Shown: positions 15,838 to 55,036 of the stretch, one piece after another
How the letters are laid out: each line of letters starts with the position of its first letter
Position numbering within the stretch: the stretch's first letter is position 1
Source of the DNA: Bifidobacterium primatium
GTDB taxonomy: Bacteria > Actinomycetota > Actinomycetes > Actinomycetales > Bifidobacteriaceae
DNA: 64,000 nt
Assembly (NCBI RefSeq): GCF_002802875.1
Contig: NZ_PEBI01000001.1
Span: 893,830 to 957,829, forward strand
Reading direction: 5' to 3'
Notes under the pieces: model-generated
What the model was told of the DNA's origin: nothing
What the model saw: the letters and a program-made list of their open reading frames with translations, nothing else
The model's database searches: none
Made by a program: the position numbers and the translations under genes

Positions 15838-15881
15838 CGTCGGTTACCATCGCCGGAGAAATCACCGCATAGCGTCGGTTA
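15812..15881 (+). repeat. 35-bp perfect tandem duplication across the asparaginase stop codon
   Basis: The 35 bases from 15812 are repeated exactly from 15847. Each copy contains the last codons plus TAG (first at 15835-15837). The second copy also supplies the first arm of the next repeat array. Confidence 0.95.
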
Positions 15882-16108
15882 TAACGCACCCATCCGTAAA
15901 ACCCGTCTCGTAGGGATGCCACGAGGCGGGTTTTACGCATCCATGCGTTATAACCTCCCCTGGCACCATCCCAGCGTCGGCTTTTGCGCATGCTTGCGTT
16001 ATAACCGACGCAAAGCTCCGCTAAGCAGTGGTTATAACGCACTCGTGCGCAAAAGCCGCCACTAAGTAGTGTTCAGCGTCGGGTTTTGCGCACGTATGCG
16101 TTATAACC
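15877..16108. repeat. Family A array: five GGTTATAACGCA units in alternating orientation
   Basis: Units of about 28-29 bp start at 15877 (forward), 15927 (reverse), 15978 (reverse), 16030 (forward) and 16080 (reverse). The period is 50-52 bp. Each runs from GGTTATAACGCA to AAAACCCG or AAAAGCCG. Opposite copies can form long hairpins, for example 15877-15955 with an inner TCTCGT/ACGAGG stem. No coding potential is seen. Confidence 0.85.
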
Positions 16109-16181
16109 GCTATGGCGGCGAGAACCACGGCACTCCCCCCGGTTCCCTTTCGTCGCTAACCTTCAACCGCGGCATCTTCTC

Positions 16182-16507
16182 AGGTCCCGTTGGTCATACA
16201 AAACGCAACCAATGGGAACCGCGGCACCTTTTCGGTTCCCGTTGGTTGTGCAGAACACGACCGATGGGAACCTACCATGTGTCACGGGTCCCATCCGTTG
16301 CATCACTCGCGACGAACGGGAACCGGCCCCATTCCCCGCTTCCTGTTGGTTGTGCAGGCTACGACCGATGGGAACCTAACGCACTTCTCGGTTCCTGCTG
16401 GTTGTGCAGCACGTAACGGATAGGAACCGGAAACGTCCCATGGTTCCCATCGGTTGCGTAAGTTGCAGCGGACGAGAGCCAACCCATGGTTCCCGTCCGT
16501 TGCGTGG
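16182..16507. repeat. Family B array: six 39-bp imperfect palindromes with 13-bp spacers
   Basis: Units at 16182, 16234, 16286, 16338, 16390 and 16442 are each 39 bp. Most run from about GGTTCCC to GGGAACC. Between them are 13-bp unconserved spacers, giving an exact 52-bp period. A decayed seventh copy starts at 16488 and runs into the next gene's 3' end. In unit 2 the arm differences are all compatible with G-U pairing. Confidence 0.9.
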
Positions 16508-16517
16508 AGCGTCGGCG

Positions 16518-19337
16518 TCAGTCGCGGTCCACGAGCGCGGTGAGGGCCCAGAGGATGCTGACCACGTCGATGGCCTCCTGCATGAACGCGCCGACGACCA
16601 CGGGAATCAGGTTGAACGCGGCGCAGACCATGCCGACCAGCGCCAGTCCCAGTCCCAGCAGCACGGCCTGCATCATCACGCGCTTGGTGCGCCGCGCGAT
16701 GGCGACGGCGTTCGGCACGGCGGCGATGTCGTCGTTCATGATGACCACCTGCGCGGACTGCGACGCGGCCGTGCTCGTGCCGTCGGTGATGGCCATGCCG
16801 ATGTCGGCGACGGCCAATACGGGCGCGTCGTTCACGCCGTCGCCCACCATCATCGTCACGGATTTCGTGGTGGATTCGCCCACGAACCGCTGCAACGCGC
16901 GATCCCACCACGGCTGCTTGCGCGGCTGCTCGTCGGTGGCCGCGCGCACGGCCGCCACCTTGTCTTCGGGGAACAGTTCGGATTTGACGTCGTCGATGCC
17001 GACCTCAGCGGCGATGACGTTCGCCGACGCGGCCTTGTCGCCGGTGAGCATGGAAAGTCGATTGACGCCCAGCGAACGCAGTCGTTCCAACGATTCCCTG
17101 GCATTGGCGCGCGGCACGTCCTTCAGGACGATGCGCGCGACGAGCCTGCCGTCGACGGCCACGTAGGCGGCCATTTCGTCGGGTGCGAGGTCGGCGAAGT
17201 GGTCGGAAGGGAAGAGCGCATCGCGCATGGCATGGTTCCGGGCGCGAGCGGCGGCCTTGTCGGCCCGTTCGCGCAATGAGACGGCCGCCGACCGAGAACG
17301 GTCCGCCTTGAGAACCTTGCGGAAACCCGTGCTGCGCGGAACCTCACCGACGCCGCGCGGGCCGGAGTCGGCCGATGACCTCGCCGCCGCAGTCTCGGAA
17401 ACCGATGCGGATACCGCGCGGAAGCCGCGCTCGGCCCGTTCCGGCAACGAGGGCGACGAATCCGATGGATCCGAAGAGCCTGTGGCCCCTGTGGCCACTG
17501 ATTCCGCCGCCAACGCTGCCGCAGACGCCGATGCAGAAGCCGAAGCAGACACAGAAGCAGAAGACGATGCCGATGCGCCCGGCAGTACGACAAACTGTTC
17601 GGCGACCGCACCCATGCCGCGCATGCCGGCCGTTACGAAGCCGAATCGTCCGACGCGAACGGTATGGCCGTCGACCTCGCCGCTGACGCCGTTGCCGGCG
17701 TCCTCCTCGATATGCCTGACCACCGGATATGCGCGTCCATGGCCCGGACGTCCGTTTTCGGGGCAATTGCGCTGGCCGGAATCGTATTTCGCGTGAAGCC
17801 GTTCGACCGCCGCCGCACCCGCCTTGGCGATACCCTTGGCGAGGATGTGCACCGAATAGCTTTCCACCACGCCGGCGAACATGAGGATGTGATCCTCGTT
17901 GAGTGCGGCGGACCGGGGCCTTACCTGCTCGGCAGACACCGACGGCTGCGCCGCGCCTGATGCGCCCGATACCCCGACAACGCACGGCGCCTCGGCAGAT
18001 CCCGCACCAGCCACAGCGTCCGCACCGACACCCGATGGCACGGCCACCACGCCGACCGGCTTGTCCACGCGCACGACCTGCGGCTTCTTGACGGTCAGCG
18101 TGCCGGTCTTGTCGAAGAAGATGTGCGAGACGCGGCCGAGATTCTCCAGCACCTCCTGCGCCTTGATGAGGATGCCGGCCTTGGCGAGCCGCCCCGTGCC
18201 GGCCATGTAGGCCACGGGCGCGGCGATGAGCAGCGGGCAGGGTGTGGCGAGCACGAGCACCTGGGCGAATCGCGTGGGCACGCCGGAGATGATCCACGCC
18301 GCACACGCGATGATGAACGAGACCACGGTGAACGGCACGGCCAGCAGGTCGGCGGTCTTGACCACGGTGGCGCGTGAGCTCTGCGCCGACCGCACAAGCT
18401 CGAGGATGCGCTGGTACTGCGAGTCGCGCGACAGTTCGGTGGCACGCATGGTGAGCATGGTGGCGCCGTTCACCGCGCCGGACATCACGCGCGCGCCGAC
18501 GAACACCTCGCGCGGCATCGGTTCGCCGTTGATGTTGGAAAGGTCGAGCGTGGCCGAACCGCTGAGCAGTTCGCCGTCGACGGGCACGGTCTCGCCCGGC
18601 AGCACCTGTAGCACGTCGCCGCGTCGCACCCGTTCGACCGGCACCGTGCGCAGATGCGATGCCGCGCCGCCGCCCGGATTCGCTCCGTCCGCGCTACCAG
18701 CACCAGCCACCAAGCTCCCGACGTCCGCACCTCCCGCAGCAGCACCGTCAGCGCCGCCGCTCAGGTTCACCCCGTCCGCAGCTCCCGCAGCTCCCGCAGC
18801 TCCCCCGACGACGCCCGGCAGGTTCACCACATGCGCGGTCTGCGGCGCTGCCTCCATCAGCGCGGTCAGGCTGCTTTCGGCCTTGGCCTGCGCATATTCC
18901 TCGATGGCCTCGCCGGAGCTGATCATCAGCACCACGGCCCAGCTCGCCCAATACTCCTGCACGGCCAGGGTGGAAAGGATTGCGACGACGGCGAGCACGT
19001 CCACGCCCACATGACCGTGCCGGATATCGTCGATCATGCCACGCAACGTATCAATCACCGTGTAGACGACCAGCACGATGACCAGCCATTGCCCCACGCT
19101 CGGATCGACCCCCCAGAACGGCCTCCCCCACGGCCGCCAATCCCACAGTCCGGCCACGACGAACGCGGAGAGGATGGTGATCGGCAGCAGCGGCACCTGC
19201 CGGCAGATGCGGCCGCACGCGCGCACGACACGAACGGCGATGTTGGGTTTGATGGGGTTCCCGATGGATTTTCCACTAGACTCCCCGCCAGGCTTTTCGA
19301 CGGGTCTTTCGTCGGGTTTCCCGATGGCTGTGCTCAT
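16518..19337 (-). CDS. P1B-type heavy-metal-transporting ATPase with low-complexity insertions
   Basis: The protein has 939 residues from ATG 19337, which has AAGGAG 7 nt upstream. The membrane metal motif is TPC (ATPCPLLIAAP, Cys367) in place of CPC. The phosphorylation site is DKTGTLT (D409), the hinge is GDGVNDAP, and the TGES-like A-domain motif reads NGEP. The HP motif is altered to SVHILAK. There is no N-terminal CxxC metal domain. Two low-complexity insertions stand out: Gly/Ala-rich near residues 170-226 and Ser/Ala-rich within the nucleotide domain near 590-690. The ion exported is uncertain, because TPC-type pumps are poorly defined. An upstream in-frame extension to 19676 lacks a ribosome site. 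Confidence 0.88.
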   Translation of the reverse strand: MSTAIGKPDERPVEKPGGESSGKSIGNPIKPNIAVRVVRACGRICRQVPLLPITILSAFVVAGLWDWRPWGRPFWGVDPSVGQWLVIVLVVYTVIDTLRGMIDDIRHGHVGVDVLAVVAILSTLAVQEYWASWAVVLMISSGEAIEEYAQAKAESSLTALMEAAPQTAHVVNLPGVVGGAAGAAGAADGVNLSGGADGAAAGGADVGSLVAGAGSADGANPGGGAASHLRTVPVERVRRGDVLQVLPGETVPVDGELLSGSATLDLSNINGEPMPREVFVGARVMSGAVNGATMLTMRATELSRDSQYQRILELVRSAQSSRATVVKTADLLAVPFTVVSFIIACAAWIISGVPTRFAQVLVLATPCPLLIAAPVAYMAGTGRLAKAGILIKAQEVLENLGRVSHIFFDKTGTLTVKKPQVVRVDKPVGVVAVPSGVGADAVAGAGSAEAPCVVGVSGASGAAQPSVSAEQVRPRSAALNEDHILMFAGVVESYSVHILAKGIAKAGAAAVERLHAKYDSGQRNCPENGRPGHGRAYPVVRHIEEDAGNGVSGEVDGHTVRVGRFGFVTAGMRGMGAVAEQFVVLPGASASSSASVSASASASASAAALAAESVATGATGSSDPSDSSPSLPERAERGFRAVSASVSETAAARSSADSGPRGVGEVPRSTGFRKVLKADRSRSAAVSLRERADKAAARARNHAMRDALFPSDHFADLAPDEMAAYVAVDGRLVARIVLKDVPRANARESLERLRSLGVNRLSMLTGDKAASANVIAAEVGIDDVKSELFPEDKVAAVRAATDEQPRKQPWWDRALQRFVGESTTKSVTMMVGDGVNDAPVLAVADIGMAITDGTSTAASQSAQVVIMNDDIAAVPNAVAIARRTKRVMMQAVLLGLGLALVGMVCAAFNLIPVVVGAFMQEAIDVVSILWALTALVDRD

Positions 19338-19755
19338 CAGATGCTCCTTACACTGGTTGTAGGGGGCCGACATCAGCGTCAGCCACATCCCAGCCGGGAG
19401 CGTATGCGCGGGGATTCCGCGATATGCCGCGTATCGATGATATCGATGGATATCGAATCGGGTAGGACGTGATTGCGCGCTGTCGGCGCTGCAATAATCA
19501 CGCCTTGTTAACCCACCCCAACGTGCGGCCGGCCGAAGGCCATGGCCGCCGTTGTGATACACGGCGTAAAGATTTCGATATTCAATTATTTCGGTAGCCA
19601 CCATACCAGCGGCCGGCCGGCGGACACGCCGGCGCCGGCCGCAAATGCGATCACCGACGAAGCACGACCACGGCAAGCACGACCACGATGGAGCATGGTC
19701 ACGATGGCAAACGCGATGAACGCAACCGACGAACGCGTATGCCGCAATCGCATAG
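19338..19755. other. Intergenic region upstream of the metal ATPase
   Basis: There is no coding region here. The part next to 19337 is the ATPase leader, with short ATATCGAT-type repeats near 19430-19465 (GATGATATCGATGGATATCG). I see no clear promoter or known riboswitch. Confidence 0.4.
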
Positions 19756-24370: not shown

Positions 24371-24453
24371 GCGAGCGTGGCGGAATGGTAGACGCGCTGT
24401 CTTCAGGTGGCAGTGAGTGTATGCTCGTGGGGGTTCAACTCCCCCCGCTCGCA
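24371..24453 (+). tRNA. tRNA-Leu (anticodon CAG), integration target
   Basis: It is a class II tRNA. Acceptor GCGAGCG pairs with CGCTCGC, the anticodon loop is TTCAGGT, and the variable arm is long (TGAGTGTATGCTCG). CCA is not encoded. Its last 20 bases lie inside the 27-bp att repeat, so integration keeps the tRNA intact. Confidence 0.96.
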
Positions 24454-24460
24454 CGATTGA
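24434..24460 (+). other. attL
   Basis: This 27-bp repeat begins TTCAACTCCCCCCGCTCGCA. It covers the T arm and acceptor end of tRNA-Leu. It is identical to 33860-33886. Confidence 0.93.
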
Positions 24461-24461
24461 G

Positions 24462-24503
24462 GAAAACCCCGAATCGTTGGAATCCCAACGGTCCGGGGTT
24501 TTC
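24462..24503 (+). terminator. Terminator after tRNA-Leu
   Basis: The long stem has arms that begin GAAAACCCCGA and end CCGGGGTTTTC, with an AATC loop. It lies just inside the element and resembles the terminator at 33886-33923. Confidence 0.85.
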
Positions 24504-24676
24504 TCGCTGTTGACATCCTTGTTTTTGACAACACTTCTGACAACAATCAGAACTCTTCCAATGATATTCGGTGCGTAAGAATCATGTTCCTACACACTGA
24601 ATAAAGCTGTTTCCACCAAGAAACATACGACATTGGCATTCCGTCAATGAAAGCCTCTACCATATTGCAATCATTG

Positions 24677-24783
24677 ACTTGGGACACTTATCCCACTTAG
24701 GACATTTACTTAGGACATGTCTAATATATTGAAATTATTGACTTAGGACACTTGGGACAAATATTTATTTATTTATTTATTTG
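24677..24783 (+). repeat. Iteron-like ACTTAGGACAT repeats with adjacent AT-rich tract
   Basis: Five copies of ACTT(A/G)GGACA(T/C/A) start at 24677, 24695, 24708, 24741 and 24750. They are followed by (ATTT)n at 24761-24783. This looks like an iteron cluster with a DNA-unwinding element, possibly an origin. The same motif occurs inverted near 31645-31717, upstream of the RepA-like gene. Flanking 24504-24676 and 24784-24981 show no gene. Confidence 0.6.
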
Positions 24784-24981
24784 AAGATATTCCTCGGTAG
24801 GTGTTGTTTTGGGGCAAGCGAATCTTTGATTCGCGCGGCAGCGTTGCGTTTCTTGCGGCATGGATGCGGTGCCTGTATCCTGAAATGTTTTCCGTGGTTC
24901 CCGTGTGATTGGAGTGGCCGGTGAGACTGAGGTATCCCGTGGCTTTCGTCTAGGCATCTGTCGTCTGGATGAAAGGAATTC

Positions 24982-25329
24982 ATGATGTCAAGGACGTTCA
25001 AGGACCGTCCGTATCGCATCCCGGCCCGCGAGGCCCTGGACCACGGTTTCGTCCGTGACTCGCGGCCGCCACGCCCCGTCACGGGTGATGTGTGGAGCGC
25101 GGATATGGCGGGGTACTTCCATTCGCGCCGCAACCGGCGGAACCATCTGCCGCTGCGTCGCTGGGGCGACTGGCGGTGGATCGAGGGCGACTGGGTCACC
25201 GACTATGGCAGCCGGCACGAAATCCGTGCCCGCCTGAGACTGGCCGCCGAAGCCTATAACCACGGGCTCATGACCGATGATTGGGACGACCCCGTCGTCT
25301 ATCAGCGCCGCCGCTGCTGGCACCTGTGA
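24982..25329 (+). CDS. Small basic protein of unknown function in the mobile element
   Basis: The protein has 115 residues, rich in Arg and Trp (for example RRWGDWRWIEGDW). It has no signal peptide or membrane segment. AAAGGA lies 5 nt before ATG 24982, and 24985 is an alternative start. It converges on the relaxase gene, with only 22 bp between the stops. The strong charge suggests nucleic-acid binding, but I recognise no domain. Confidence 0.65.
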   Translation: MMSRTFKDRPYRIPAREALDHGFVRDSRPPRPVTGDVWSADMAGYFHSRRNRRNHLPLRRWGDWRWIEGDWVTDYGSRHEIRARLRLAAEAYNHGLMTDDWDDPVVYQRRRCWHL

Positions 25330-25351
25330 CCGTCACGCCGCCCGGGACCGG

Positions 25352-28300
25352 TCATATGCTGAAAACCGGGCCGCTGAAGGACGCCGAGGGCGACGAGGAG
25401 CCGTCGTAGCCGCCGCTGGCGGGGGTCTGGTACTGCTCCCTGATCTCCAGGCACTGGCGCACGTCGTTTTCGAGGGACGCCGCCCTGACCAGCCTTCCCT
25501 CGTCGCGGCCCTCCGTGAGGTCGGCGGCGTGTTCGACGTACGCGTCTCGCATGGTCATCTCCCAGCTGGACCGCACGTCCATGTCGTGCTCGTACTGCAG
25601 GGCGGCCTGCTCCATACGCTTCGGCCCCATGGCCTCCAATTGCTTCCGGCTGAGTCGTTCGACCGGCTTCACCTGTTCGTCGATGGCCTCGCCGAGCGTC
25701 ATGACGCCGCCGTCCTTCATGCCGTATTCCCAGCCCCACATGCGGTTGCCGGGATCCCGGCGCTTCATCTCGGCCAGGGCCTCGCGCAGTCCCGGTTTCA
25801 CGCTGAGACGCGGCCGCCAGTCATACCACCATGACGGCATGGAAGGGTAGTCGCCGGGCTCTTCGTAGAACTTCCGGGATCGAATACGCTCGTAATCATC
25901 CTGGTAGTTCCGCATCAGGCCGTACGACCACGGCGCGAACTGCCGGCTTTCCTCGCTGGGCGTGTCGACGATGCGTTCGTATCGTTCGATGGCCGGCTGC
26001 TGCACGTACCGGCGCAGCACCTTGAGGGCCGCGTCGTCGACCACGCCCCGTGCCGCCGCCTCACGTCCGTCCGCCACGGCCTGTTCCAATACGGCGATGT
26101 CACGCGCCCTCGCCACGGCCCTGTCGTGAAGGATGGGCCTCTCCTCGGTGGCCCGCAGGCGCTCCAGCGCCTTTCGGTAGATCCGCGCCCTGCAATACCA
26201 GATGGCCTCGTTCTCCCATGCGGCCCTCCACGCGCCCGTCGGCGGGTCGCGGAACGGCAGGGGCACGCGGTCGAGCGTCCCCCGCCCGGAGGACACGACC
26301 GGCATGTCCGCGTGCATGTCCAGTCCGTCACGGGGCGCCGTGATCGGACCGCAGCAGTACGCGTGCATGGCCTCCCGCCCGTTCATGGCCTTGACCGGGT
26401 CGGGGCGGCCGTGTCTCCAGTCGTTGGGTTCGCCCAGTTCCGCAAGCGTTCCTTGCAGCCTCGACTCCGCCTCGATCACGGCGGGGTCGTGGCCGATGAC
26501 GTAATCGCGGTTCGCCCTCTCCCGCCGTTTCTCCTGCTCGCTGGGATGGTTGGGGTTCTCGTATTCGACCGGCCGCACCCCCCACCGCGTGTGGAACTCG
26601 TCGCGGACGCGCGCGATTCTCCTGTCGAAGCCGTCCAGTTCCTCCCGCCACTGGTCGAGTCTCGCCTTCTGCCGTCCCAGCAGGTCGAGGAACGGCTTCG
26701 GGGGACGGTTCATCGACCGCACCCACTTGTCCTGGAGCAGGCCGCTGATACGCGAGTCCCGTTCCAGGACGGCCTCGTCGTAGCGTTCGCCGGCCTGCCG
26801 TTTCGCCTCCTCCAGCCGTTCGCGGTCATTATCGACCCGGCGTTGCAGTTCGACGACGCGCTTCCACGCCCGGCGTCGTCTTCCGTCGGCCCGGCGCTCG
26901 GCCAGATCGGCCTCGTCGAGCGTCCTCCGGTCACGCGCCAGCCCCTTCCTCATGGATTCGGGCGTGTCCGACCATTCCCGTTCATCCACGTATCCGAGGT
27001 CATGCAACGCGATTCCGCTGTCGTCGAGCAGTTCTCGCATCAGGCGCAGGCGCTCCGGGTCGGCCGCCCCGCCCGTGTCGGGCATGCCGAGGTCGGCCGT
27101 GATCTCGGCCCTCGCGTCCCGTTCGAGCTCGGAGACGAGGCCCGTGCCCGTGTCGTTGCGGTAGGCGTCCTCGTACATGGCCTTCATCTGTTTCAGGTCG
27201 CCGGCCACGGCGTAGACGCGGTTCTCGCCCCGTCCTCGTGTCTGCCCGACGTACATGCCGTTCGCGGTCGACGCCTCGTCGAGCCAGGTGACGGACCGGG
27301 CTCCGGTGACGCCCTGGTTGCCGTATGTCGTGGCCGCGTACCCGTATTCCACGGCGTCGGCCACGTAGTCCATGGGCAGGGTCACCATCCGGCCGCCGTC
27401 CAACGGCTCGGCCCGCAGGCCGGTGTCGTCGATGGCGGTGACGCGCCAGCGGCGGCGGTTCGCGACCCCGAGGAACCGGTCGTTGCGTCGGGTGGCTATC
27501 AGATCGCCCCGTCTGACGCGGATGCCGTCGCGGCCCGTGGCCTCCGGCCCGTCGAGCACGCCTTCGTGTTCGAGTCGTGTATGAATGGCGGCGTTCACGG
27601 CCAGCGCCTGCGCGCGGGTGCGCACGCTGACCACGGTGCCCTCGCGCCATTCGGACGCGATGCGGGCCACGAGCCGTTCCGCGTCGTCGAACCGCTCCAC
27701 CAGAGCCTTCTCCCCGACGGGGCGGCGGCATAGGATGTCGAACACGCCTCCGGGGTCCTCGCGGCCGCGCATGCGCAGGGTCAGTGCGGCGTACGCGGGG
27801 TCTCGGAACCGGTGGGTGATGGTCATCTCCGCGTGGCGGGGCGTCTCCTCCAGGGCGAGCTGCAGGACGCCGCCGGCGCCCACGGCGGGCAGTTGGGCGC
27901 GGTCGCCGACCATCCACACCGGGCATCCGTACCGGCCGGCCAGTTCGAGCACGGCCACGGCGACGTCCTGGCCGAGCATGCCGGCCTCGTCGATCACGAT
28001 CGTGCGCGGCCCGTCCGGCCCGTCGAGACGGTATGCGTCGTCCCCCGGCGTGCGGCTGTCCCCCCGCCGCCATATGCCGTGCCCGTCCATGCGCCAGCCA
28101 TGCTCCCAGATGAGCTTCTGCACGCTGTCCGCCGGCAGGTCGAGTTCCCCGCCCAGCACGTTCGCGGCCTGTTTCGACGGGGTCAGGCCGATCACGTCAA
28201 GCCCCCGCACCGCCGCCTTGAGCATGGTGGTCTTGCCGGTGCCGGCCGCGCCCTCGACGACCTTCAGCCCGCCGCCCGAACGCAGGTATCCCACGGCCGC

Positions 28301-29626
28301 GCGCTGCTCCCGGTCCAATCCCCGCACCGTCTCCCCGTCCAGCGGCGGCACGGCCGTGGCGGGGCCGGCGGCGTTCAGGCCGAGCAGCAGGGAGCGGATG
28401 CGCTGCTCGCGCTCCAACACGAGCGGCGACGTGTAACGGCGATGGTAGCCCCGGTCCGGCGCGCCCATGCCGGCCGCGAGGTCCATGCTGCCCCCGACCG
28501 CGCGGGCCGCGATCGCCCCGATACGGTCCATCATGCCCAGCACGTCGTAGCGGCGTTCGCCCAGTATCGTGACGACCTCGGCCTCGACCTCCCAGCGCGA
28601 ATACGCGCTCCGCCCCCTCGCCACGAGCCGGTCCACGGCCAGGCGGGACACCTCCACGTCGTCGATCAGGGCCGGGTCCGGGGCCACGGGCGCGGGCAGC
28701 GGCGGCAGGTCGGGAAGACGGCCGAACTCCGCCAGCCACTCCCCCACGCCCTTCTCCCCCGTCTTGGCGGGACGCCCCTTCTTCCACGCCAGCCGTCGGA
28801 ACGCGTGCAGGGTGCGCGCCGGCGGCATCTCGTCCGGGTCGGCCCCGTTGCGCTCCCGCCATTCCGCGATCAGCCGGTCGAGCTCATGTTCGGCCTGGTC
28901 GCGCCGCTTCGACGCCCTCGCCGCCATGTCCTCCAGTTCGGGCACCGAACCATCCGCCATCAGCGTCAGCCCGTGCGCCGCGAACAGCCGCCGGTACTCG
29001 ATGTCGTTCGCCATGCCGTACGTCTCCAACGCCGCCAAAAGGGGCGCGAGCTCCCGCATCGGCTTCGTGCGGAACGCGTGCCACCGGCCGTCCGGCCCCT
29101 TCGTCCGGTTCACGACCACCGTGTGCAGATGCAGATGCGGGTCCCCCGCACGCGACGTGTGATGCACCGCCACCGCAGCCTCCATGCCCAGGCCATGCAC
29201 GTCCACCTGCTCGCCCCGGCCGCCCACACGCGTCACCAGACGCGACGCCAGCACCCCAATCTTCCGCTCGTTGACCAGACGGGCCCGCGACTCCACCGCC
29301 CCGCGCAGGGACGCGTCCCCCAACGCCCACGCCAGCGACTGGGCCTTGCCCACCGTGAACGTCCAATCCGCTGCCAGCACCGAATTCGCCCGCACCACGC
29401 CACGCCTCTCCACACCATCCGCACTGCGGAAACGCAGCAGGTTCGAGAACCCGTCCCGCTCCAGATCACGCCGGGCCGTCAGCGCCCCTCCGGCGTCATA
29501 CGACAACCCCATCACACGGCCCACATACCCCGGATACGCCTCGGCCGCATCCCAGTAATACGACGCCACCGCCGACGACGAGCCCGAAGCCGACGCATGG
29601 ACCAGCCGGAAACCATACACCACCAC
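25352..29626 (-). CDS. MobF-family conjugative relaxase-helicase (TrwC/TraA type)
   Basis: The protein has about 1424 residues from a GTG near 29626, and the start is uncertain. The N-terminal relaxase domain has the catalytic tyrosine pair SYYWDAAEAYPG and the metal-binding histidines in HHTSRAGDPHLHLHTVVVN. A RecD-like helicase follows with Walker A GAAGTGKTT and Walker B IVIDEAGM, then YGNQGVTGARS and a long charged C-terminus with coiled-coil-like stretches. MobF enzymes nick oriT and unwind the transferred strand. An in-frame extension to ATG 29746 has no ribosome site. No T4SS or coupling protein is encoded nearby, so the element is mobilizable rather than self-transmissible. Confidence 0.9.
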   Translation of the reverse strand: MVVYGFRLVHASASGSSSAVASYYWDAAEAYPGYVGRVMGLSYDAGGALTARRDLERDGFSNLLRFRSADGVERRGVVRANSVLAADWTFTVGKAQSLAWALGDASLRGAVESRARLVNERKIGVLASRLVTRVGGRGEQVDVHGLGMEAAVAVHHTSRAGDPHLHLHTVVVNRTKGPDGRWHAFRTKPMRELAPLLAALETYGMANDIEYRRLFAAHGLTLMADGSVPELEDMAARASKRRDQAEHELDRLIAEWRERNGADPDEMPPARTLHAFRRLAWKKGRPAKTGEKGVGEWLAEFGRLPDLPPLPAPVAPDPALIDDVEVSRLAVDRLVARGRSAYSRWEVEAEVVTILGERRYDVLGMMDRIGAIAARAVGGSMDLAAGMGAPDRGYHRRYTSPLVLEREQRIRSLLLGLNAAGPATAVPPLDGETVRGLDREQRAAVGYLRSGGGLKVVEGAAGTGKTTMLKAAVRGLDVIGLTPSKQAANVLGGELDLPADSVQKLIWEHGWRMDGHGIWRRGDSRTPGDDAYRLDGPDGPRTIVIDEAGMLGQDVAVAVLELAGRYGCPVWMVGDRAQLPAVGAGGVLQLALEETPRHAEMTITHRFRDPAYAALTLRMRGREDPGGVFDILCRRPVGEKALVERFDDAERLVARIASEWREGTVVSVRTRAQALAVNAAIHTRLEHEGVLDGPEATGRDGIRVRRGDLIATRRNDRFLGVANRRRWRVTAIDDTGLRAEPLDGGRMVTLPMDYVADAVEYGYAATTYGNQGVTGARSVTWLDEASTANGMYVGQTRGRGENRVYAVAGDLKQMKAMYEDAYRNDTGTGLVSELERDARAEITADLGMPDTGGAADPERLRLMRELLDDSGIALHDLGYVDEREWSDTPESMRKGLARDRRTLDEADLAERRADGRRRRAWKRVVELQRRVDNDRERLEEAKRQAGERYDEAVLERDSRISGLLQDKWVRSMNRPPKPFLDLLGRQKARLDQWREELDGFDRRIARVRDEFHTRWGVRPVEYENPNHPSEQEKRRERANRDYVIGHDPAVIEAESRLQGTLAELGEPNDWRHGRPDPVKAMNGREAMHAYCCGPITAPRDGLDMHADMPVVSSGRGTLDRVPLPFRDPPTGAWRAAWENEAIWYCRARIYRKALERLRATEERPILHDRAVARARDIAVLEQAVADGREAAARGVVDDAALKVLRRYVQQPAIERYERIVDTPSEESRQFAPWSYGLMRNYQDDYERIRSRKFYEEPGDYPSMPSWWYDWRPRLSVKPGLREALAEMKRRDPGNRMWGWEYGMKDGGVMTLGEAIDEQVKPVERLSRKQLEAMGPKRMEQAALQYEHDMDVRSSWEMTMRDAYVEHAADLTEGRDEGRLVRAASLENDVRQCLEIREQYQTPASGGYDGSSSPSASFSGPVFSI

Positions 29627-30312
29627 GCACCACCACCCCGACCAAGCCGGCCACAAGACCCCGCACCTACCAACGGTAGGCAGAGCACATTCCCTATATG
29701 CGTTGAATCGTATGGTCTTCGTCCATATGCTGCTGGTACAAGACATAGTTGGATTTCATGGACTACTTTTCGATGACAATGGGTTATATCAATGGCATGT
29801 CGCCATCCATTTCCCCGTGTGCTCTTCAAGCGATACGAGGAAATGACACGAACCGACTGACATTGAAGTGTAGAGACATGCAATAGCAAATGGGTGGCGG
29901 AGGGAATTCCTTCCGCCACCCATATCCAGAAACGGGCCGGTTAAGCCCAGCGGCTTCGACTCCGTCCGGTCAAGTCTTAGGTGCAGGCCTTCAAAACACC
30001 GAACAGGTGGAACTGTCTCCGCCACCACTTCCATTATCCATCATCATCCGACACGGCGGTTACGCGGTCGGAAAAACAAGAACTCTTATCCATGAGTGAC
30101 GAACCATATAATCGGCCAGTTTGACTCTTCCGGTTTGCTTCAAACCTCATGTTTTCCAGTACGCGGAAGCATTCCCTGCCCCTTGGAACGCCGGATGCCG
30201 GCCTTTCACCCGCTAAAGTGGGATGCGGCTCTGCCTCCGACGTGGAACTCGGACGTGGAGCGGCGGAATCGTTCCGTCAACATCCAGAAACAAACAGGTA
30301 AGGAGAAGTCTC
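29627..30312. other. Non-coding region with 30-bp palindrome, candidate oriT
   Basis: No supported gene is seen in this stretch. A near-perfect palindrome with arms GGGTGGCGGAGGGAA (29892-29906) and TTCCTTCCGCCACCC (29907-29921) stands out. A related GTCTCCGCCACCAC occurs near 30018. Its position directly upstream of a MobF relaxase is where oriT is usually found. The nic site is not identified. Confidence 0.4.
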
Positions 30313-30480
30313 ATGAAGACCAATCCGCAGGGGCCGCATGACGGCTCATCACAGTTCACCATCATCGCTACGGCCTCGACCGTGGCCCTGGCCGGGCAGA
30401 TGTCGCCGACGCTCGCATGGATCGCTTTCATGGCGGTTCTCGCGTACGCCGCGGTATCCGACTGGCGTGAACGCAGGTAG
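30313..30480 (+). CDS. Small single-pass membrane protein (55 aa)
   Basis: MKTNPQGPHDG is followed by one hydrophobic helix (about residues 18-45) and a basic end, DWRERR. AAGGAG lies 8 nt before ATG 30313, and a strong terminator follows, so this is a genuine short transcript unit of the element. The function is unknown. Confidence 0.65.
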   Translation: MKTNPQGPHDGSSQFTIIATASTVALAGQMSPTLAWIAFMAVLAYAAVSDWRERR

Positions 30481-30498
30481 GCCGGCATAGCCTCTGTC

Positions 30499-30536
30499 GG
30501 CGGCCGCAGCCTGTGGGCTGCGGCCGCCTTCCTTTT
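30499..30536 (+). terminator. Intrinsic terminator after the small membrane protein
   Basis: A 13-bp perfect stem (GGCGGCCGCAGCC / GGCTGCGGCCGCC) with loop TGTG is followed by TTCCTTTT. Confidence 0.9.
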
Positions 30537-30550
30537 GACCGGTATCATGC

Positions 30551-31627
30551 TCAGCCGTTGGTGTTCCTCAGGAATGTCTCACGTGCTTCATCAGCGGAAG
30601 AGTATCGCTCGGTCAGATACCAGATGGTGCGGGCGGCCGTCTCCCGGAGTCGGGCCGTTTTGACCAGTCCCATTCTTTCGAGCTGCTGCCGGGCGCGGGT
30701 CAGCCGTTTCACGTCCGACTCCCGTTTTCCGTGGCAGGCCTCGATGATCTCGCTCCTCAACGCGACCCCTCCTTTTTTGAGCAACGCCTCGTAGACCTCG
30801 TGCATGGCGTCACTCAACGCGTCGGGGTCCACGGCCTTGTCCAGCGCATATTGACGTGCGAGAATCTCGTTCAGGTCCTCGCCGGGGGCCTCGCACACGT
30901 TCTCAGCGATGGCGAATCGGGCGGGTTCGCCGTTGATGATGCGCGTGATCTCCTTGATATCGTAGGCGTATACGGCCCCGGCCCGGCCTTCGTTCGCTTT
31001 GGTCACCTCGAGAAGATGCTTGCGCCGGCTCTCGTCGAAGACGAATCCGATCGCCTGCCTGGCACCGTTGCGCCAGGCCGCCGATCCGATGTACGAGTCC
31101 TTGAGGGAACGTGGCTTACGGTTGCAGTGACTGACCATCACGATGGCCAGATCGTGTTTGACCGCGAAGGCGCTGAGGCTGACCATGACCTTGTTGACGT
31201 CGTCCTGACTATTGCTGTTCTTACGGCCGATGTATTCCGTGACGGGGTCGAATATCACCAGACGGACGTCGTTGTCGTCGACGTATCGGCCGAGCTCTTT
31301 TTCCAGATTTCGGCAGATGTCCAGATTGTAGTCGGCCCCCAATAGTGTCAGCCGGCTGGTATCGGCTCCGCAGGCTTCGAGTTTCGCACGCATCGCCCCG
31401 GGCTCGGTCTCACGGTTCAGGATGATGACGTCCTTGCCCTGCCCGTCATATACGCCTTCCGCCTTGCCTAGGGTAACCTGGGTGGCCAGCCAGTTGAAAA
31501 ACGTGGTCTTGCCGACTCCCCCGTCCCCGTAGGCCAGGGTGACGGCCCTGAGCGGGATGAACGGGGCCAGCCATCTGACAGGGGCCGATGGCTGTATTTG
31601 GTTGGCTTTCACTAGTTTGCTGTTCAT
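30551..31627 (-). CDS. RepA-like RecA-fold ATPase (plasmid/ICE replication type)
   Basis: The protein has 358 residues. Walker A GDGGVGKT (34-41) follows the AAA_25-type start VRWLAPFIPLRAVTLAYG. The Walker B region is VRLVIFDPV and a sensor-like VMVSHCNRK follows. The C-terminal 90 residues form a predicted winged-helix region (LRSEIIEACHGKRESDVKRLTRARQQL). These proteins are hexameric helicases related to RSF1010 RepA and are common in plasmids and integrative elements. Iteron-like repeats lie directly upstream. It may support autonomous replication of the excised circle; that is inference. Confidence 0.82.
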   Translation of the reverse strand: MNSKLVKANQIQPSAPVRWLAPFIPLRAVTLAYGDGGVGKTTFFNWLATQVTLGKAEGVYDGQGKDVIILNRETEPGAMRAKLEACGADTSRLTLLGADYNLDICRNLEKELGRYVDDNDVRLVIFDPVTEYIGRKNSNSQDDVNKVMVSLSAFAVKHDLAIVMVSHCNRKPRSLKDSYIGSAAWRNGARQAIGFVFDESRRKHLLEVTKANEGRAGAVYAYDIKEITRIINGEPARFAIAENVCEAPGEDLNEILARQYALDKAVDPDALSDAMHEVYEALLKKGGVALRSEIIEACHGKRESDVKRLTRARQQLERMGLVKTARLRETAARTIWYLTERYSSADEARETFLRNTNG

Positions 31628-31644
31628 GATTATCCCGTATATAC

Positions 31645-31717
31645 ATGTCCTAAGTGGGTTAAGTGTCTCAAGTCAATGTTTTCAACGACTGTTGCATGTC
31701 CTAAGTACGTCCCAAGT
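31645..31717 (-). repeat. Inverted set of the ACTTAGGACAT repeats upstream of the RepA-like gene
   Basis: On the minus strand ACTTAGGACAT occurs at 31645-31655 and 31696-31706, with variants at 31663-31673 and 31707-31717. A weaker copy lies near 31741. They occupy the promoter region of the RepA-like gene, so binding could control replication and expression together. Confidence 0.6.
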
Positions 31718-31811
31718 AGATTCGGAACACGTCGCAACTGACATGTATACTAAGTTTGGTTGGTTTTCGATAACTGATTTTTGAAATGCCGCTGTGTCAG
31801 CAGCGGCATTT

Positions 31812-32036
31812 TTATCGCAGTTCAGCAGTGGAGATGTGTTCATTGGCGGCCAGCCAATCATCAACGTCTGAACGACGGTAGATAACCAGCTTGGACGACG
31901 GCTTGATGAACTTCGGTCCTTTACCCGTATAGCGCAACTGCGCAGCAAGCGCTCGGGTCATCCCTGGCACATATTCGCAGAATTCTTTAATGTTCAAGAA
32001 CTGGGCTGAATTTGATGATTGCGTCGCATTATCCAT
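31812..32036 (-). CDS. AlpA/excisionase-like helix-turn-helix protein
   Basis: The protein has 74 residues. The LNIKEFCEYVPGMTRALAAQ region and KLVIYRRSDVDDWLAANE match the winged-helix MerR/AlpA-type excisionase fold, in which the C-terminal RRSDVDDWL is typical. It is divergent from the XRE gene across a short operator region and upstream of the RepA-like gene. It probably controls excision or replication. Confidence 0.78.
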   Translation of the reverse strand: MDNATQSSNSAQFLNIKEFCEYVPGMTRALAAQLRYTGKGPKFIKPSSKLVIYRRSDVDDWLAANEHISTAELR

Positions 32037-32052
32037 AATTACTCCTTTTCAA

Positions 32053-32090
32053 TACGAAATCGTAGAGATTTTTTTCCATACGATATCGTA
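32053..32090. promoter_or_regulatory. Two palindromic operators TACGAAATCGTA / TACGATATCGTA
   Basis: Perfect or near-perfect 12-bp palindromes lie at 32053-32064 and 32079-32090, centres 26 bp apart. They sit between the divergent AlpA-like and XRE genes. They are the likely binding sites of the XRE protein and could form the element's lysogeny-type switch. Confidence 0.7.
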
Positions 32091-32147
32091 TGTATTATTT
32101 TAATCACAAAAAGTCCAATTCCTTCAGGGAAGGGCGGCAAGGATAAT

Positions 32148-32633: not shown

Positions 32634-32645
32634 GCAAGGAAATCA

Positions 32646-33737: not shown

Positions 33738-33859
33738 CAACATTTTGACAACAATCGGCTTAAATTCAATACCACACAGCAGAATTGACGATGCTCAATA
33801 TCGGCGTATTTTCAATCGTTTCAGCCATTATGTAATCAGCCATGAGTGTTAGCGGAGTT

Positions 33860-33886
33860 TTCAACTCCCCCCGCTCGCACGATTGA
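33860..33886 (+). other. attR
   Basis: Exact 27-bp copy of the tRNA-Leu 3' end (24434-24460). It is followed by a terminator that resembles the one after the intact tRNA. The sequence just before it does not form a tRNA. Confidence 0.93.
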
Positions 33887-33923
33887 AAACCCGAATCATT
33901 GGAATCCCAATGATTCGGGTTTT
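33886..33923 (+). terminator. Terminator at the right end of the element
   Basis: A 17-bp stem (AAAACCCGAATCATTGG and its complement) has an AATC loop and ends in a T-run. It is probably the original tRNA-Leu terminator left outside after integration. Confidence 0.85.
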
Positions 33924-44426: not shown

Positions 44427-44934
44427 GATATCCCCTTTGGGTTCCGCCGCAGAGTGGTCAATCCCCTCGGAATCGGAACCATCGGCGGGGCCGCCGTCGC
44501 TGTTGCCGGCAGGCCGTCGGTACGTTCCGCATTCCGCGGAATTGTGCGGATACCTTCCCCGCGCCATACTTCACACGCGGTTACCGGTATTCTAGCGGCA
44601 ACGAACATCCAACACGACTGACATTTTCGCGGATTCTGTCGGCTTGCCGGTCCCCGCGCGGCGCGATGCGGCCAATGCCCCCATCGATACGACAACCCGC
44701 CGAATCCTGTCCATTGCGCCGCCTCAAAACGTGGATTATAAACGAAATCACGGCGCCAACAACGGCGTTGACGCCGGCCAAAAACTCTCGGCTAGTGCAC
44801 GGGAACCGGCGGCAGGCCCGCAACCGCGAAATCCCGTGACGTCCCCAAAACGTCACACCGATCGGCGAAAACCCCACAGAACCCCTACGTCAACCGCCAA
44901 ACCCTACGGAACCCCTTGTGGGACAATGGAATCT
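44427..44934. other. Divergent intergenic region between the cation ATPase and rlmB
   Basis: No gene is seen in these 508 bp. A GTGACGT/ACGTCAC inverted repeat lies at 44836-44856, about 80 bp upstream of rlmB, and could be an operator. A GGAACCCC-type repeat precedes rlmB. Confidence 0.4.
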
Positions 44935-45933
44935 ATGGCTATGAAGAAAGGGCCGACCAAGGGGTCTGGCGGAAAACATCGTAATAAGCTGCGCGGGCAT
45001 GGGCCCACTCCCAAGGCCGAGGACCGCGTGTACCACAAGGCATATCGGGCCAAGAAGGCGGCCGACCGCCGCAAGATGGCCGATCCTCGCCTGGCGGCGA
45101 AGCGTCGTGCGGCGAAGTTCACCTCGGATTCCGATGATCTGGTCATCGGCCGCAACTCGGTGCTCGAGGCGCTGCGCGTAGGCGTTCCCGCGAAGGAGCT
45201 GTACATCGCGGCCCGCATCGAGCATGACGACCGCACGCGCGAGATCGTGCGTCTGGCGGGCGCCCACGGCCTGCATCTGCTCGAGGCCGACCGTCTGGAG
45301 ATCGACCGCATCGCGCGTTCGAGCAACCATCAGGGCGTGGTGCTCAAGGCCATGCCATACCAGTACCATTCGCTGCAGGAGCTGGCCGATCGCGCCGACA
45401 AGAAGGCACGCGCCATGGAGGCCGCCGGCCCCGCCGCGCAGATCAAGGCCCGTCCGCTGTTCATCGCGCTCGACGGCGTGACCGACCCGCAGAACCTCGG
45501 CGCGGTCATCCGTTCGGCCGCCGCATTCGGCGCCAACGGCGTGATTCTGCCGGAGCGTCGTTCCGCCTCGGTGACCGCCGCCGCGTGGAAGGTCTCCGCC
45601 GGCGCCGCCGCGCACATGCCGGTCGCCCGCGTCGTGAACCTCACCAAGGCCATCGAAAGCCTAAAGGAACGCGGCTACTACGCCGTCGGTCTGGACGGCG
45701 GCGGCGATGCGCTCGTCGGCGAGACCAACTTCGAGACCGACCCGCTCATCGTGGTGCTCGGCTCGGAGGGCAAGGGCCTGAGCCGTCTGGTCCGCGAGGC
45801 CTGCGACTCCATCGCCGGCATTCCGATCACGTCGATGGTCGAATCGCTCAACGCCTCCGTGGCTGCGGGCATCAGCCTCTACGCCGTGGCCCGCGCCCGC
45901 CGCGAGGCCGCCGCAGCCGCTGCCGCGAAGTAA
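44935..45933 (+). CDS. SpoU-family rRNA 2'-O-methyltransferase (RlmB-like)
   Basis: The protein has 332 residues from ATG 44935; 44926 and 44941 are alternative starts. The N-terminus is basic and probably binds RNA (KGPTKGSGGKHRNK). The substrate-binding domain starts at IGRNSVLEAL. The SPOUT knot motifs are present: LDGVTDPQNLGAVIRSA, LGSEGKGLSRL and ITSMVESLNASVAAGI. These fit 23S rRNA G2251 2'-O-methyltransferases. The enzyme is cytoplasmic and acts during ribosome assembly. Confidence 0.92.
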   Translation: MAMKKGPTKGSGGKHRNKLRGHGPTPKAEDRVYHKAYRAKKAADRRKMADPRLAAKRRAAKFTSDSDDLVIGRNSVLEALRVGVPAKELYIAARIEHDDRTREIVRLAGAHGLHLLEADRLEIDRIARSSNHQGVVLKAMPYQYHSLQELADRADKKARAMEAAGPAAQIKARPLFIALDGVTDPQNLGAVIRSAAAFGANGVILPERRSASVTAAAWKVSAGAAAHMPVARVVNLTKAIESLKERGYYAVGLDGGGDALVGETNFETDPLIVVLGSEGKGLSRLVREACDSIAGIPITSMVESLNASVAAGISLYAVARARREAAAAAAAK

Positions 45934-46021: not shown

Positions 46022-46111
46022 GGTTCCTGCCCGTCGTATCGCTACAACCAACAGGAACCCATCAGCCAATACGGTTCCCATCCGTCGTGCATTCACGAAC
46101 CAACAGGAACC
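46022..46111. repeat. Second locus of the family B palindromes
   Basis: Two units (46022-46059, 38 bp; 46073-46111, 39 bp) run from GGTTCC to GGAACC and are separated by a 13-bp spacer. They match the 16182-16507 array about 30 kb away. A 10-bp tandem CCACTACCAG repeat lies at 46149-46168, 6 bp from the next gene's stop. Confidence 0.88.
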
Positions 46112-46174: not shown

Positions 46175-47578
46175 CTAGCTCGCCCATACGGCGGCGTCGG
46201 GATCGTAATCGGGATCGTATCCGTCGTCGCCGTACGACGATTCGTCGTCGATTACGCCGGCGTCGGCGTCGGCGTTGATGGCGTCCATCACCTTGGCGTC
46301 GATCTTGTACTGGGGCAGTACGTTTTCGATGTAGCTGTTCACGGCCTCCGCCATCGGCACGTCATGACCGACCTTTTCGGCGAGGAACCAGCGATGGTCG
46401 AGGATCTCGTGGAAGAACTGCGCCGGCTCGATCTGCGAACGGTATTCCTTCGGAATCATGCGCACGGTCGGTTCGAACACCTCGCGCATCCAGTCGGTGG
46501 CCACGATCTCCAGGTCCTCGCCCTGACGCCACGTCGACGTGCGGTAGGCGTCCAGATCGTTGAGCAGTCGGCGCGCCTGGTTCTCCTGCACGTCGAGGCC
46601 GGTGAGCCTCAGCAGCTTGCGCGAGGCGTAACCGGCGTCGACCACGCGTGGCCGCACGCGCACGCGGTTGCCGTCCTCCGACGTGTTCATCTCGAGCTCG
46701 TCCACGTCGAATCCAAGCTGGTTGAGTTTGTTGACGCGCTTCTCGATCTTCCACATCTCGTCGGGGCTGAAGCTTTCCACGTCGGTCAGCGCACTCCACA
46801 GCGAATGGTAGCGCTCGACCAGGCGGTTGCCCACCTCGATCTCATCCACGTCGTCGGGCAGCAGCTTGCCGGAGCTCAGATCCATCAGTTCGCCGATGAT
46901 GTTCGTACGCGCCAGGTCGATGTCGTATTCGCGCTGGCCTTCCGTCAGCGTCGGGTAGAGCGCGCCGGTCTCGGCGTCCACAAGCACGGCGGCGAAGCAG
47001 TCGGCGTCGCGCAGGAACAGCACGTTCGACAGCGACACGTCGCCCCAGTAGAAGCCGATGAGGTGCAGGCGCACGAGCAGCACGGCGAGCGCGTCAATCA
47101 GCCGGTCGGCGGTGTCCTCGCGCAGGTTTCGCGCGAACAGCGCACGGTACGGCAGCGAGAACTTGAGGTGCTGGGTGACGAGCATGGCTTCGAGCGGCTT
47201 GCCGTCGCGGTCGTGCCGGCCGGTGACGACGGCGATCGGCTTGACGGACGGCACGTCGATCTTCTCGAGCTGGCGCAGCAGTTCGTACTCGCGCTGTGCC
47301 ACCGATTGCGTGATCTCCTTCATCGCATACACGTCGTTGCCCACGCGCACGAATCGCACGACGTGGCGGGAGATGCCGCGCGGCAGATTGGCGAGCAGGT
47401 CGTCGGGCCACTGCGAGAGCGGCTTGTGCCACGGCAGCGTGAACATCTTCGGGTTCGAACTCGCGGCGGTGATCTTCAACGCCTTCGGTTCGCTAGGCCG
47501 TTTGCCGCCGACCGCTTCGTCGACGGCCTTCACCGATGTGGCCTGTACAAGTCTGGGGTCCAATTCCACGTTTTCCAT
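46175..47578 (-). CDS. DUF4032-like protein, kinase-fold (lipopolysaccharide kinase-like)
   Basis: The protein has 467 residues from ATG 47578. The N-terminal half resembles a protein-kinase fold: YAMKEI (candidate Lys), an HLIGFYWGDVSLSNVLF block like HxDxxxxN, and VLVDAETG as a DFG-like motif. The remainder matches actinobacterial DUF4032 proteins by my recall. The substrate is unknown. The C-terminus is acidic (about 40 residues with many Asp). It is downstream of nothing obvious and flanked by palindrome arrays on both sides. The function is not assigned. Confidence 0.8.
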   Translation of the reverse strand: MENVELDPRLVQATSVKAVDEAVGGKRPSEPKALKITAASSNPKMFTLPWHKPLSQWPDDLLANLPRGISRHVVRFVRVGNDVYAMKEITQSVAQREYELLRQLEKIDVPSVKPIAVVTGRHDRDGKPLEAMLVTQHLKFSLPYRALFARNLREDTADRLIDALAVLLVRLHLIGFYWGDVSLSNVLFLRDADCFAAVLVDAETGALYPTLTEGQREYDIDLARTNIIGELMDLSSGKLLPDDVDEIEVGNRLVERYHSLWSALTDVESFSPDEMWKIEKRVNKLNQLGFDVDELEMNTSEDGNRVRVRPRVVDAGYASRKLLRLTGLDVQENQARRLLNDLDAYRTSTWRQGEDLEIVATDWMREVFEPTVRMIPKEYRSQIEPAQFFHEILDHRWFLAEKVGHDVPMAEAVNSYIENVLPQYKIDAKVMDAINADADAGVIDDESSYGDDGYDPDYDPDAAVWAS

Positions 47579-47610
47579 AATCACCAACTTACCCAATCCG
47601 CGTGATTTGA

Positions 47611-47758
47611 CGCATGAATCACCAGATACCCTCGCATATCCCGATTCATGCGCATCCTCGTTGCGCACGAATCATCCGATGCACTCATATATCCGCATTC
47701 GTGCGAAATAGGCATATGCACGAATCACGCGATATATCGATAAGCATCGATTCATGCC
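47611..47758. repeat. Family C array: three 42-bp palindromes with 11-bp spacers
   Basis: Units at 47611, 47664 and 47717 start (C/T)GCA(C/T)GAATCA and end near GATTCATGCG or ATTCGTGCG. The 53-bp period is exact. It lies directly upstream of the DUF4032 start and unlike families A and B has AT-rich interiors (TATATCG). Confidence 0.88.
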
Positions 47759-54530: not shown

Positions 54531-54578
54531 AGTATATAGCGTTTGCCAGCTTTTGCAAAAACTGTTGAGAGCGCTAAC
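54531..54578 (-). promoter_or_regulatory. GH43 promoter with LacI operator
   Basis: On the minus strand TTGCAA (54553-54558) and TATACT (54531-54536) are separated by 16 bp, a plausible sigma-A promoter. GTTAGCGCTCTCAAC (54564-54578) lies just upstream and resembles LacI-family operators centred on AGCGCT. It is probably controlled by the LacI regulator at 50646-51662. Confidence 0.65.
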
Positions 54579-54663
54579 TTTTATCGGCGTGTCATGTACT
54601 GAAACCGTGCACAGTACTTGCATCAAATCCAGGTCCTGCGTCGATTCCGCAGGTCTTGACTGA

Positions 54664-54754
54664 CTCGATACGACAGGTCCCGCGTTCCCGACCTTGACCG
54701 AATCGATACGCCAGCCCCCACGTCCCCGGCCAAACCGATACGACAGGCCCCACA
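54664..54754. repeat. Three CGATACG(A/C)CAG repeats
   Basis: CGATACGACAGGTCCCGC, CGATACGCCAGCCCCCAC and CGATACGACAGGCCCCAC begin at 54666, 54704 and 54736. They lie in the long gap before the kinase gene. Their function is unknown. Confidence 0.7.
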
Positions 54755-54813
54755 GCCTTCCCCGACCGTCGCACACAACCAGCCGCCACGCACAACCGAC
54801 CGCCCAAAAATCG

Positions 54814-55036
54814 GAAAAGCGGGCCTACGGCATCACCAAAATTGAAAAGTGGGTCTAGCGCATCGCGAAGAGTCGGTTTTCGGCGCCTATATATACTCCT
54901 TAGACCCACAAACCCCTTAATGAACGAATTTGCCCACGATTATTGAATGGTGCAGACCCACAAATTGATTTCATGAACAACTAGGTCCACAAAACCGTTT
55001 GAGTAGACCCACAAACCTCACGAGTAGACCCACAAA
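54814..55036. repeat. Family D sites: TAGACCCACAAA cluster upstream of the kinase
   Basis: Forward copies lie at 54901, 54953, 54982, 55004 and 55025. Inverted copies (GTGGGTCTA, GCGGGCCTA) lie at 54849 and 54819. The spacing 54849-54901-54953 is exactly 52 bp twice, then 29, 22 and 21 bp. TATATATA between the halves (54889-54896) could be a -10 box. Together with 54303-54813 this is an 860-bp gap with no supported gene. Confidence 0.8.

What the first reader, a model, noticed from the sequence alone, without database searches (positions are those of the whole stretch)
15877..55036. Four unrelated intergenic repeat families share a 50-53 bp period
Families A (starts 15877, 15927, 15978, 16030, 16080), B (52 bp, six units, plus a pair at 46022/46073), C (53 bp, three units) and D (54849, 54901, 54953: 52 bp twice) have different sequences but nearly the same spacing. 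52.5 bp is five turns of B-DNA, so each palindrome would face the same side of the helix. That suggests ordered protein binding, such as a nucleoid or regulator array, or one common copying mechanism acting on different seeds. I know of no description of this pattern.
Basis: partly seen in the sequence, partly recalled or inferred. Interest (0 to 1): 0.78.

Follow-up and report, generated by a model that had tools for sequence, protein, structure and literature searches.

The report
Fifty-two-base palindrome arrays in bifidobacteria
Several bifidobacteria carry, often where two genes end facing each other, short rows of mirror-image DNA motifs whose letters differ between families and species but whose spacing of about five turns of the double helix is held nearly constant, which hints at an unknown protein that reads the spacing.

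Summary
Families A, B and C are dyad arrays stepping 51, 52 and 53 bp; D is a looser cluster. Steps are nearly fixed: A 73 of 90 at 51, B 99 of 108 at 51-53, H 39 of 42 at 52. A motif-blind scan of sampled intergenic DNA found more families with this period in this genome and sister species. One gene-to-gene slot holds A+B, B, H, F or H+F arrays in different species. Six alignable orthologous arrays show 0 indels and 84 substitutions; flanks show 13 and 50. Substitutions are not rarer in arrays than in flanks. The arms do not covary in B, H and F, and neighbouring spacers are nearly unrelated. Arrays favour convergent gene pairs: 16 of 27 slots. No REP transposase was found in this genome, no TIGR protein in nine genus genomes. 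Best reading: helically phased binding arrays for unknown DNA-binding protein(s), outwardly BIME-like. Protein and function are inferred. A prediction for one relative in another genus failed.

The parts
15877..16109 (.). Family A array: five asymmetric dyads (near GGTTATAACGCA-N4-TGCGYAAAA, orientations + - - + -), 51-bp register
   Evidence: orthologous array in G005 aligned without indel
16141..16500 (.). Family B array: half-site GGTTCCYRTYSGT alternately inverted; dyads at 16182, 16234, 16286, 16338, 16390, 16442 (39 bp plus 13-bp spacer); lone half-sites 16141 and 16488
46022..46111 (.). Family B pair of dyads (46022-46059, 46073-46111) between the rlmB-like gene (44644-45933, +) and the convergent gene starting at 46175
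   Evidence: 2 units here, about 5 in G005 and in G001
47612..47757 (.). Family C array: three 40-bp dyads (near GCAYGAATC-N22-GATTCRTGC), 53-bp step; its start overlaps the gene call 46175-47668
54849..55036 (.). Family D cluster: AGACCCACAAA copies, first inverted and degenerate, then direct at 54902, 54954, 55005, 55026 (steps 52, 51, 21); looser class, not a palindrome array
14809..15837 (+). Asparaginase-like gene, left border of the A+B slot (best models below their curated cut-offs)
16518..19676 (-). Heavy-metal P-type ATPase gene, right border of the A+B slot
   Evidence: its last 299 codons found in 8 of 8 genus relatives

Best explanation
These are helically phased binding arrays. 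Each dyad (about 28-40 bp as templated here) holds two inverted half-sites that are read independently, most simply by a dimeric DNA-binding protein. Dyads repeat every 51-53 bp, five helical turns, so successive dimers sit on one face and can contact one another. The arrays lie mostly at gene 3' ends, often between convergent genes, and probably act as a protein-coated boundary that stops converging RNA polymerases or holds supercoils. Shown: the geometry, its recurrence in families with different sequences, no indels in six orthologous arrays, arm independence, 3'-end placement as a tendency, slot reuse by different families.
For: Steps nearly invariant within families A, B, H, F. 0 indels / 84 substitutions in 894 bp of six orthologous arrays against 13 / 50 in 665 bp of flank, Fisher p 7.5e-6. 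Spacers nearly random in sequence yet modal in length (A 67 of 71 at 23 bp, among steps within 1.5 bp of 51). No arm covariation in B (126 units), H (67 units) and F (50 units). New families with the same period found de novo. Same slot, different family, same period. 16 of 27 slots convergent against 76 of 372 background gaps, p 1.2e-5; 1 of 27 divergent against 79 of 372, p 0.013. If three slots with doubtful gene calls are counted as not convergent: 13 of 27, p 0.0012.
Against: No protein was identified. Arrays are not short of substitutions: 0.094 per base against 0.075 in flanks; in the wider alignment half-sites 0.122, gaps inside arrays 0.219, flanks 0.098. Phase is not kept across A-B borders: 8 steps from 38.5 to 149.5 bp. 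Predicted RNA hairpins are strong: 7 of 8 strands folded have z from -3.3 to -9.2, one -1.3. Between neighbouring B dyads a few positions are more alike than random (z 2.4, 2.4, 5.0). Family E steps are irregular (1 of 4 at 51). The indel test used arrays chosen because they align unit for unit. Cross-family agreement could come from one ancestral array. One B array lies on the 5' side of a chorismate mutase gene.
Confidence: 0.5

Rival explanations
1. REP/BIME-like elements working as RNA: the transcribed dyads fold into hairpins that terminate transcription or protect mRNA 3' ends; the fixed step is a by-product.
For: Mostly 3'-end, often convergent placement, as described for REPs (PMC3733652, passages). 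Strong predicted folds on 7 of 8 strands.
Against: Variable positions in the two arms do not covary in B, H, F; spacer ends show no clear covariation. RNA hairpins need no fixed 51-53 bp step. One terminator-like site in the A+B slot, against 0.7 in shuffles.
Confidence: 0.22
2. No constraint: each family grew by tandem duplication of one 51-53 bp unit, and all families descend from one ancestral array, so the common period is inheritance.
For: B, G, H and F half-sites share a TTCG-like inner part (by eye). Unit numbers differ between species, in one aligned array by exactly 52 bp (L116 v L023). Array substitution rates are not below flanks.
Against: Neighbouring spacers only slightly above random identity (A 0.50 v 0.43, B 0.40 v 0.34, H 0.45 v 0.40, F 0.52 v 0.44), so units are old, yet lengths did not drift; indel deficit against flanks.
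Confidence: 0.18
3. Non-autonomous mobile elements spread by a transposase (RAYT/REPIN or MITE style).
For: Dispersed palindromes; family swaps at orthologous slots between sister species.
Against: No Y1 transposase in this genome (control rings in 5 of 14 genomes); other transposases were not searched. Of A spacers, all 11 pairs at 80% identity or more are, by my reading, orthologues or neighbours in one cluster; B has 9 such pairs of 13-nt spacers, H 3, F 6, not all sorted. No match of the A+B slot on plasmids; no exact B or H dyad on viral contigs.
Confidence: 0.07
4. Guide-RNA arrays like TIGR or CRISPR, with the variable gaps as spacers.
For: Alternating repeats with short variable gaps of fixed length, outwardly like TIGR units (PMC12045711, passages).
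Against: No Nop-domain (Tas) protein in any of 9 genus genomes; arrays dispersed at many loci; repeats degenerate rather than copied. Cas genes were not searched.
Confidence: 0.03

Closest known systems
REP / BIME elements (E. coli, Pseudomonas, Xanthomonas)
   Same: Dispersed intergenic palindromes, grouped, alternating orientation, mostly between unidirectional or convergent genes (PMC3733652 and PMC2817692, passages)
   Different: No Y1 transposase in this genome; step 51-53 bp. In two 50-kb stretches of E. coli K-12 the REP tails step 28-29 and 63-70 bp, with one of 15: 7 steps in all. Arms do not covary; many families share one geometry.
Spaced dyad GGGACAG(N)15TGTCCC of Bifidobacterium animalis subsp. 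lactis (Tong et al. 2017, PMC5217627, abstract and passages)
   Same: Intergenic dyad of fixed length with variable middle, mostly nearer a 3' end
   Different: In G149, the genome with most matches of 151 searched (its species is not given), these are not in regular 52-bp arrays; single steps of 53, 54, 57 and 60 occur
TIGR arrays
   Same: Alternating repeats with short variable spacers
   Different: TIGR units carry mostly 9-nt spacers and lie beside a Nop-domain protein gene; no such protein here
Mycobacterial MIRU repeats (recalled, no call)
   Same: About 53-bp intergenic repeats in an actinobacterium
   Different: Recalled as direct repeats; not compared here

Membership tests
REP/BIME | Dispersed extragenic palindromes in many copies | tested here: met
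   B: 7 exact dyads in own genome, 14 in G001, 20 in G005; A: 29 forward and 22 reverse matches in own at up to 3 mismatches, some dyads counted on both strands; H: 32 each in G002 and G008
REP/BIME | Hairpin-forming palindrome with pairing kept | tested here: inconclusive
   Folds strongly on 7 of 8 strands but variable positions do not covary
REP/BIME | Associated Y1 (RAYT) transposase | tested here: not met
   PF01797 0 of 1 own genome; relatives not searched
REP/BIME | GTAG or CGTC terminal tag | not tested
   Tags known from abstract and passages of PMC3733652 only
TIGR array | Nop-domain Tas protein | tested here: not met
   PF01798 0 of 9 genus genomes; control rings in 4 of 14
TIGR array | 9-nt spacers (up to 12) between two 8-12-nt repeats | tested here: not met
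   Between-dyad spacer modes 13 (B), 16 (H), 23 (A), 19-20 (F)
CRISPR array | Near-identical copied repeats | tested here: not met
   Repeats degenerate at many positions
CRISPR array | cas genes | not tested
   no search made
Phased protein-binding array | Spacing conserved more than sequence | tested here: met
   the indel test rests on six chosen arrays
Phased protein-binding array | A protein that binds it | not testable with these tools
   Needs pull-down or ChIP

The most novel reading that the evidence does not exclude
A geometry-defined chromosomal system: in one lineage of bifidobacteria, slots between convergent genes are occupied by dyad arrays whose only lasting property is a step of five helical turns, while the sequence family is swapped from species to species. 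A common, still unknown reader (or reader family) coats these arrays and forms chromatin-like boundaries between converging transcription units.
Probability: 0.3. Interest if true: 0.88.

Novelty: new variant of a known kind. Interest (0 to 1): 0.72.

Why it matters
If right, it gives a bacterial case in which spacing rather than sequence is the conserved signal, and a ready set of natural arrays to fish out the protein. It would make the old question of what BIME-like arrays between convergent genes do testable in a genus used in human health. If the RNA or descent rival is right, it is still a family-rich repeat class for which the searches listed no description (titles and abstracts seen for most papers; passages of five).

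Tried and rejected
RAYT or Y1 transposase origin: not found in this genome. TIGR: no Nop protein. RNA or cruciform pairing as the conserved feature: no covariation in B, H or F. In one search the H arms were above the global null (z 2.83) but not within locus (z -0.35). In A the arms are systematically unlike (z -6.8), so A is an asymmetric dyad. Spacer hairpins in A: no clear excess. Viral or plasmid carriage: no exact B or H dyad in viral contigs, no match of the A+B slot in plasmids. The Brevibacterium and Microbacteriaceae hits of the B pattern (4 of 29 stretches) are single dyads in another context and were dropped from the counts; still holds them.

Prediction that failed: the B. animalis dyad (PMC5217627) is not in regular 52-bp arrays in G149. 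Samples outside the genus (152 kb) showed no 50-53 segment, but are too small to exclude the class. The G004 (128 kb) and G006 (260 kb) samples also had none, although G006 has many A units; G006 stretches chosen for A arrays were left out of that scan.

Indel test: one search aligned nine stretches (eight pairs of loci) across whole slots, one of them over only 27 bp, and counted 36 gaps inside the array span, many where B units were gained or lost or between A and B arrays. One search keeps the six arrays that align unit for unit (five A, one B), with L102 only in part (128 of 179 bp). That choice favours a low indel count. G005 is listed with 9% contamination.

Orientation count: one search printed 17 of 27 convergent. 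On checking, the B array of L104 has a real chorismate mutase gene at its left, which makes it tandem, so the count is 16 convergent, 10 tandem, 1 divergent. L102, L113 and L192 rest on a short border gene without a Pfam family.

Rfam: no family at the arrays in the window and seven other loci. Other shift peaks (42 and 30 bp) were looked at but not explained.

Full report
What was given. The window is G000:C1:893830-957829 of an unnamed 2.70-Mb genome.

Check in the window. A (15877-16109) is five dyads in an exact 51-bp register. B (16141-16500, 46022-46111) is a ladder of 13-bp half-sites inverted about every 26 bp. In one search, which is not freed of duplicates, 149 of 186 plus-to-minus and 172 of 197 minus-to-plus steps are 26 bp. 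C (47612-47757) is three dyads at 53 bp. D is a mixed cluster with steps 52, 51 and 21.

Is the period general? A shift scan of noncoding DNA, blind to motif, in 464 kb of the own genome (window included) gave 41 repeats where shuffles gave 1.0, and uncovered family E with a 51-bp step. The same scan in relatives uncovered F (TTATTCGACGCACG..), G (CGGTTACGTTTCGTCA..) and H (CTGCGGGTTYGT..), at 52 bp there. Over nine sample sets, 19 of 697 segments lie at 50-53 against 5 and 5 in the neighbouring bands; bands 30-33, 38-41 and 42-45 are also high. H has 67 exact dyads in three genomes, all 36 bp, with neighbours at 52 (24), 53 (1), 101 (1), 104 (10) and 156 (1). In 189 genomes of the family, H is found in those three and as single hits of other length in two more.

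Steps. With duplicates removed, centre-to-centre steps are: B 70 at 52, 23 at 51.5 and 6 more within 51-53, of 108; A 73 at 51 of 90; H 39 at 52 of 42; F 16 at 51 and 17 at 52 of 36; C 5 at 53 of 7; G 2 at 52 and 2 at 104 of 4; E 1 at 51 of 4. The rest of A and B lie mostly within 3 bp of the mode or near double steps. Between families the step is not fixed: eight A-B neighbours range from 38.5 to 149.5; five F-H neighbours are 40, 49, 51, 51, 92; one A-H is 51; one F-G is 107.

Slots. Between the asparaginase-like gene and the convergent P-type ATPase: own A+B; G005 A+B; G001 B; G002 H; G003 F; G008 H followed by F; G006 one B-like remnant; G004 a short gap with none; G007 none (arrays read by eye from the printed sequence). 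At a second slot, behind an rlmB-like gene, own has 2 B units, G005 and G001 about 5, G006 a remnant; the other five relatives show no such array. Between own and G005, two slots hold an A array in one and a B array in the other, a third a B array against an A plus a B unit, and a fourth B arrays of different length. Families therefore turn over while the step stays.

Is spacing selected? In six orthologous arrays, 0 indels and 84 substitutions in 894 bp, against 13 and 50 in 665 bp of flanking intergenic DNA. The arrays were chosen as alignable unit for unit; the wider alignment has 36 gaps inside array spans, many where units were gained or lost. Substitutions give no such signal: 0.094 per base in arrays and 0.075 in flanks; half-sites 0.122, gaps within arrays 0.219, flanks 0.098. 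Spacers of neighbouring units are close to random in identity, so sequence has drifted while length has not.

Hairpin or half-sites? In B and H the variable positions of the two arms are no more alike than random pairs; F likewise; A arms are systematically different. Between neighbouring B dyads a few positions are more alike than random. Seven of eight strands fold well, as inverted half-sites must. I take this as favouring half-sites read one by one, without excluding RNA roles.

Place. After merging arrays of one slot by hand, leaving out D and one array at a contig end, and correcting L104, 16 of 27 slots are convergent, 10 tandem, 1 divergent; background gaps of 150 bp or more are 76 convergent, 217 tandem, 79 divergent of 372 (p 1.2e-5). 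With three doubtful slots counted as not convergent it is 13 of 27 (p 0.0012). Three of the 27 are one orthologous slot in three species. Gene calls are my own GC3-based calls, only some checked by family search.

Compared with the known. BIMEs are nearest in kind. REP tails in 100 kb of E. coli K-12 alternate at 28-29 and 63-70 bp (7 steps, one of 15), so the 52-bp step is not theirs. No Y1 transposase was found in this genome. TIGR is disfavoured by the missing Nop protein. One earlier paper lists a spaced dyad in B. animalis (abstract and passages); the genome with most matches lacks regular 52-bp arrays, so the class is not general to the family. Searches of the paper library listed nothing that describes these arrays; the library lacks most subscription papers.

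Verdict. Geometry and recurrence are firm. Selection on spacing is likely. Protein binding is the best reading at about even odds. The boundary role is a proposal.

Noticed in passing
window 24371-33910: Integrated element: tRNA-Leu at 24371-24454, its 3' end repeated near 33860-33885, with a tyrosine recombinase gene at 32646-33737 just inside.
   Followed up: partly
window 15812-15881: Perfect 35-bp tandem duplication covering the end of the asparaginase-like gene and running into the first A dyad; G005 has a single copy.
   Followed up: partly
L126 1560-1720, L127 10980-11130, L130 12483-12640, L131 17025-17170 (G002), L179 7335-7480 (G004): Another class: pairs of direct repeats 42 bp apart (four helical turns), some with an inverted copy across a central GAGTATG..CATACTC-like hairpin; different sequences share the 42-bp step.
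   Followed up: partly
L186 16558-16714, L193 4753-4898 (G008), L127 16552-16740 (G002): D-like clusters GGTTAKACCCAGA laid out minus copies first, then plus copies, with a centre step of 50-51 and outer steps mostly near 22 and 30, which sum to 52.
   Followed up: partly
G149:C1, for example L289 1018-1373: Palindromes like GCGTAATTTGGGACAG..TTGTCCCGAATTACGC, not in regular arrays, resembling the dyad reported for B. animalis.
   Followed up: partly
L129 8637, L130 18310, L147 18580: CTCCCTCC..GGAGGGAG hairpin elements repeated at about 50-54 bp, a different-looking class.
   Followed up: no
L114 against L009 and L036 (G005): Own locus is 99.96-99.97% identical to two G005 loci, while other orthologous stretches are mostly about 85-98%; recent transfer, or contamination of the G005 assembly.
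   Followed up: no
window 54655-54751: Three copies near CGATACGACAG at steps of 38 and 32 bp in front of the D cluster.
   Followed up: no
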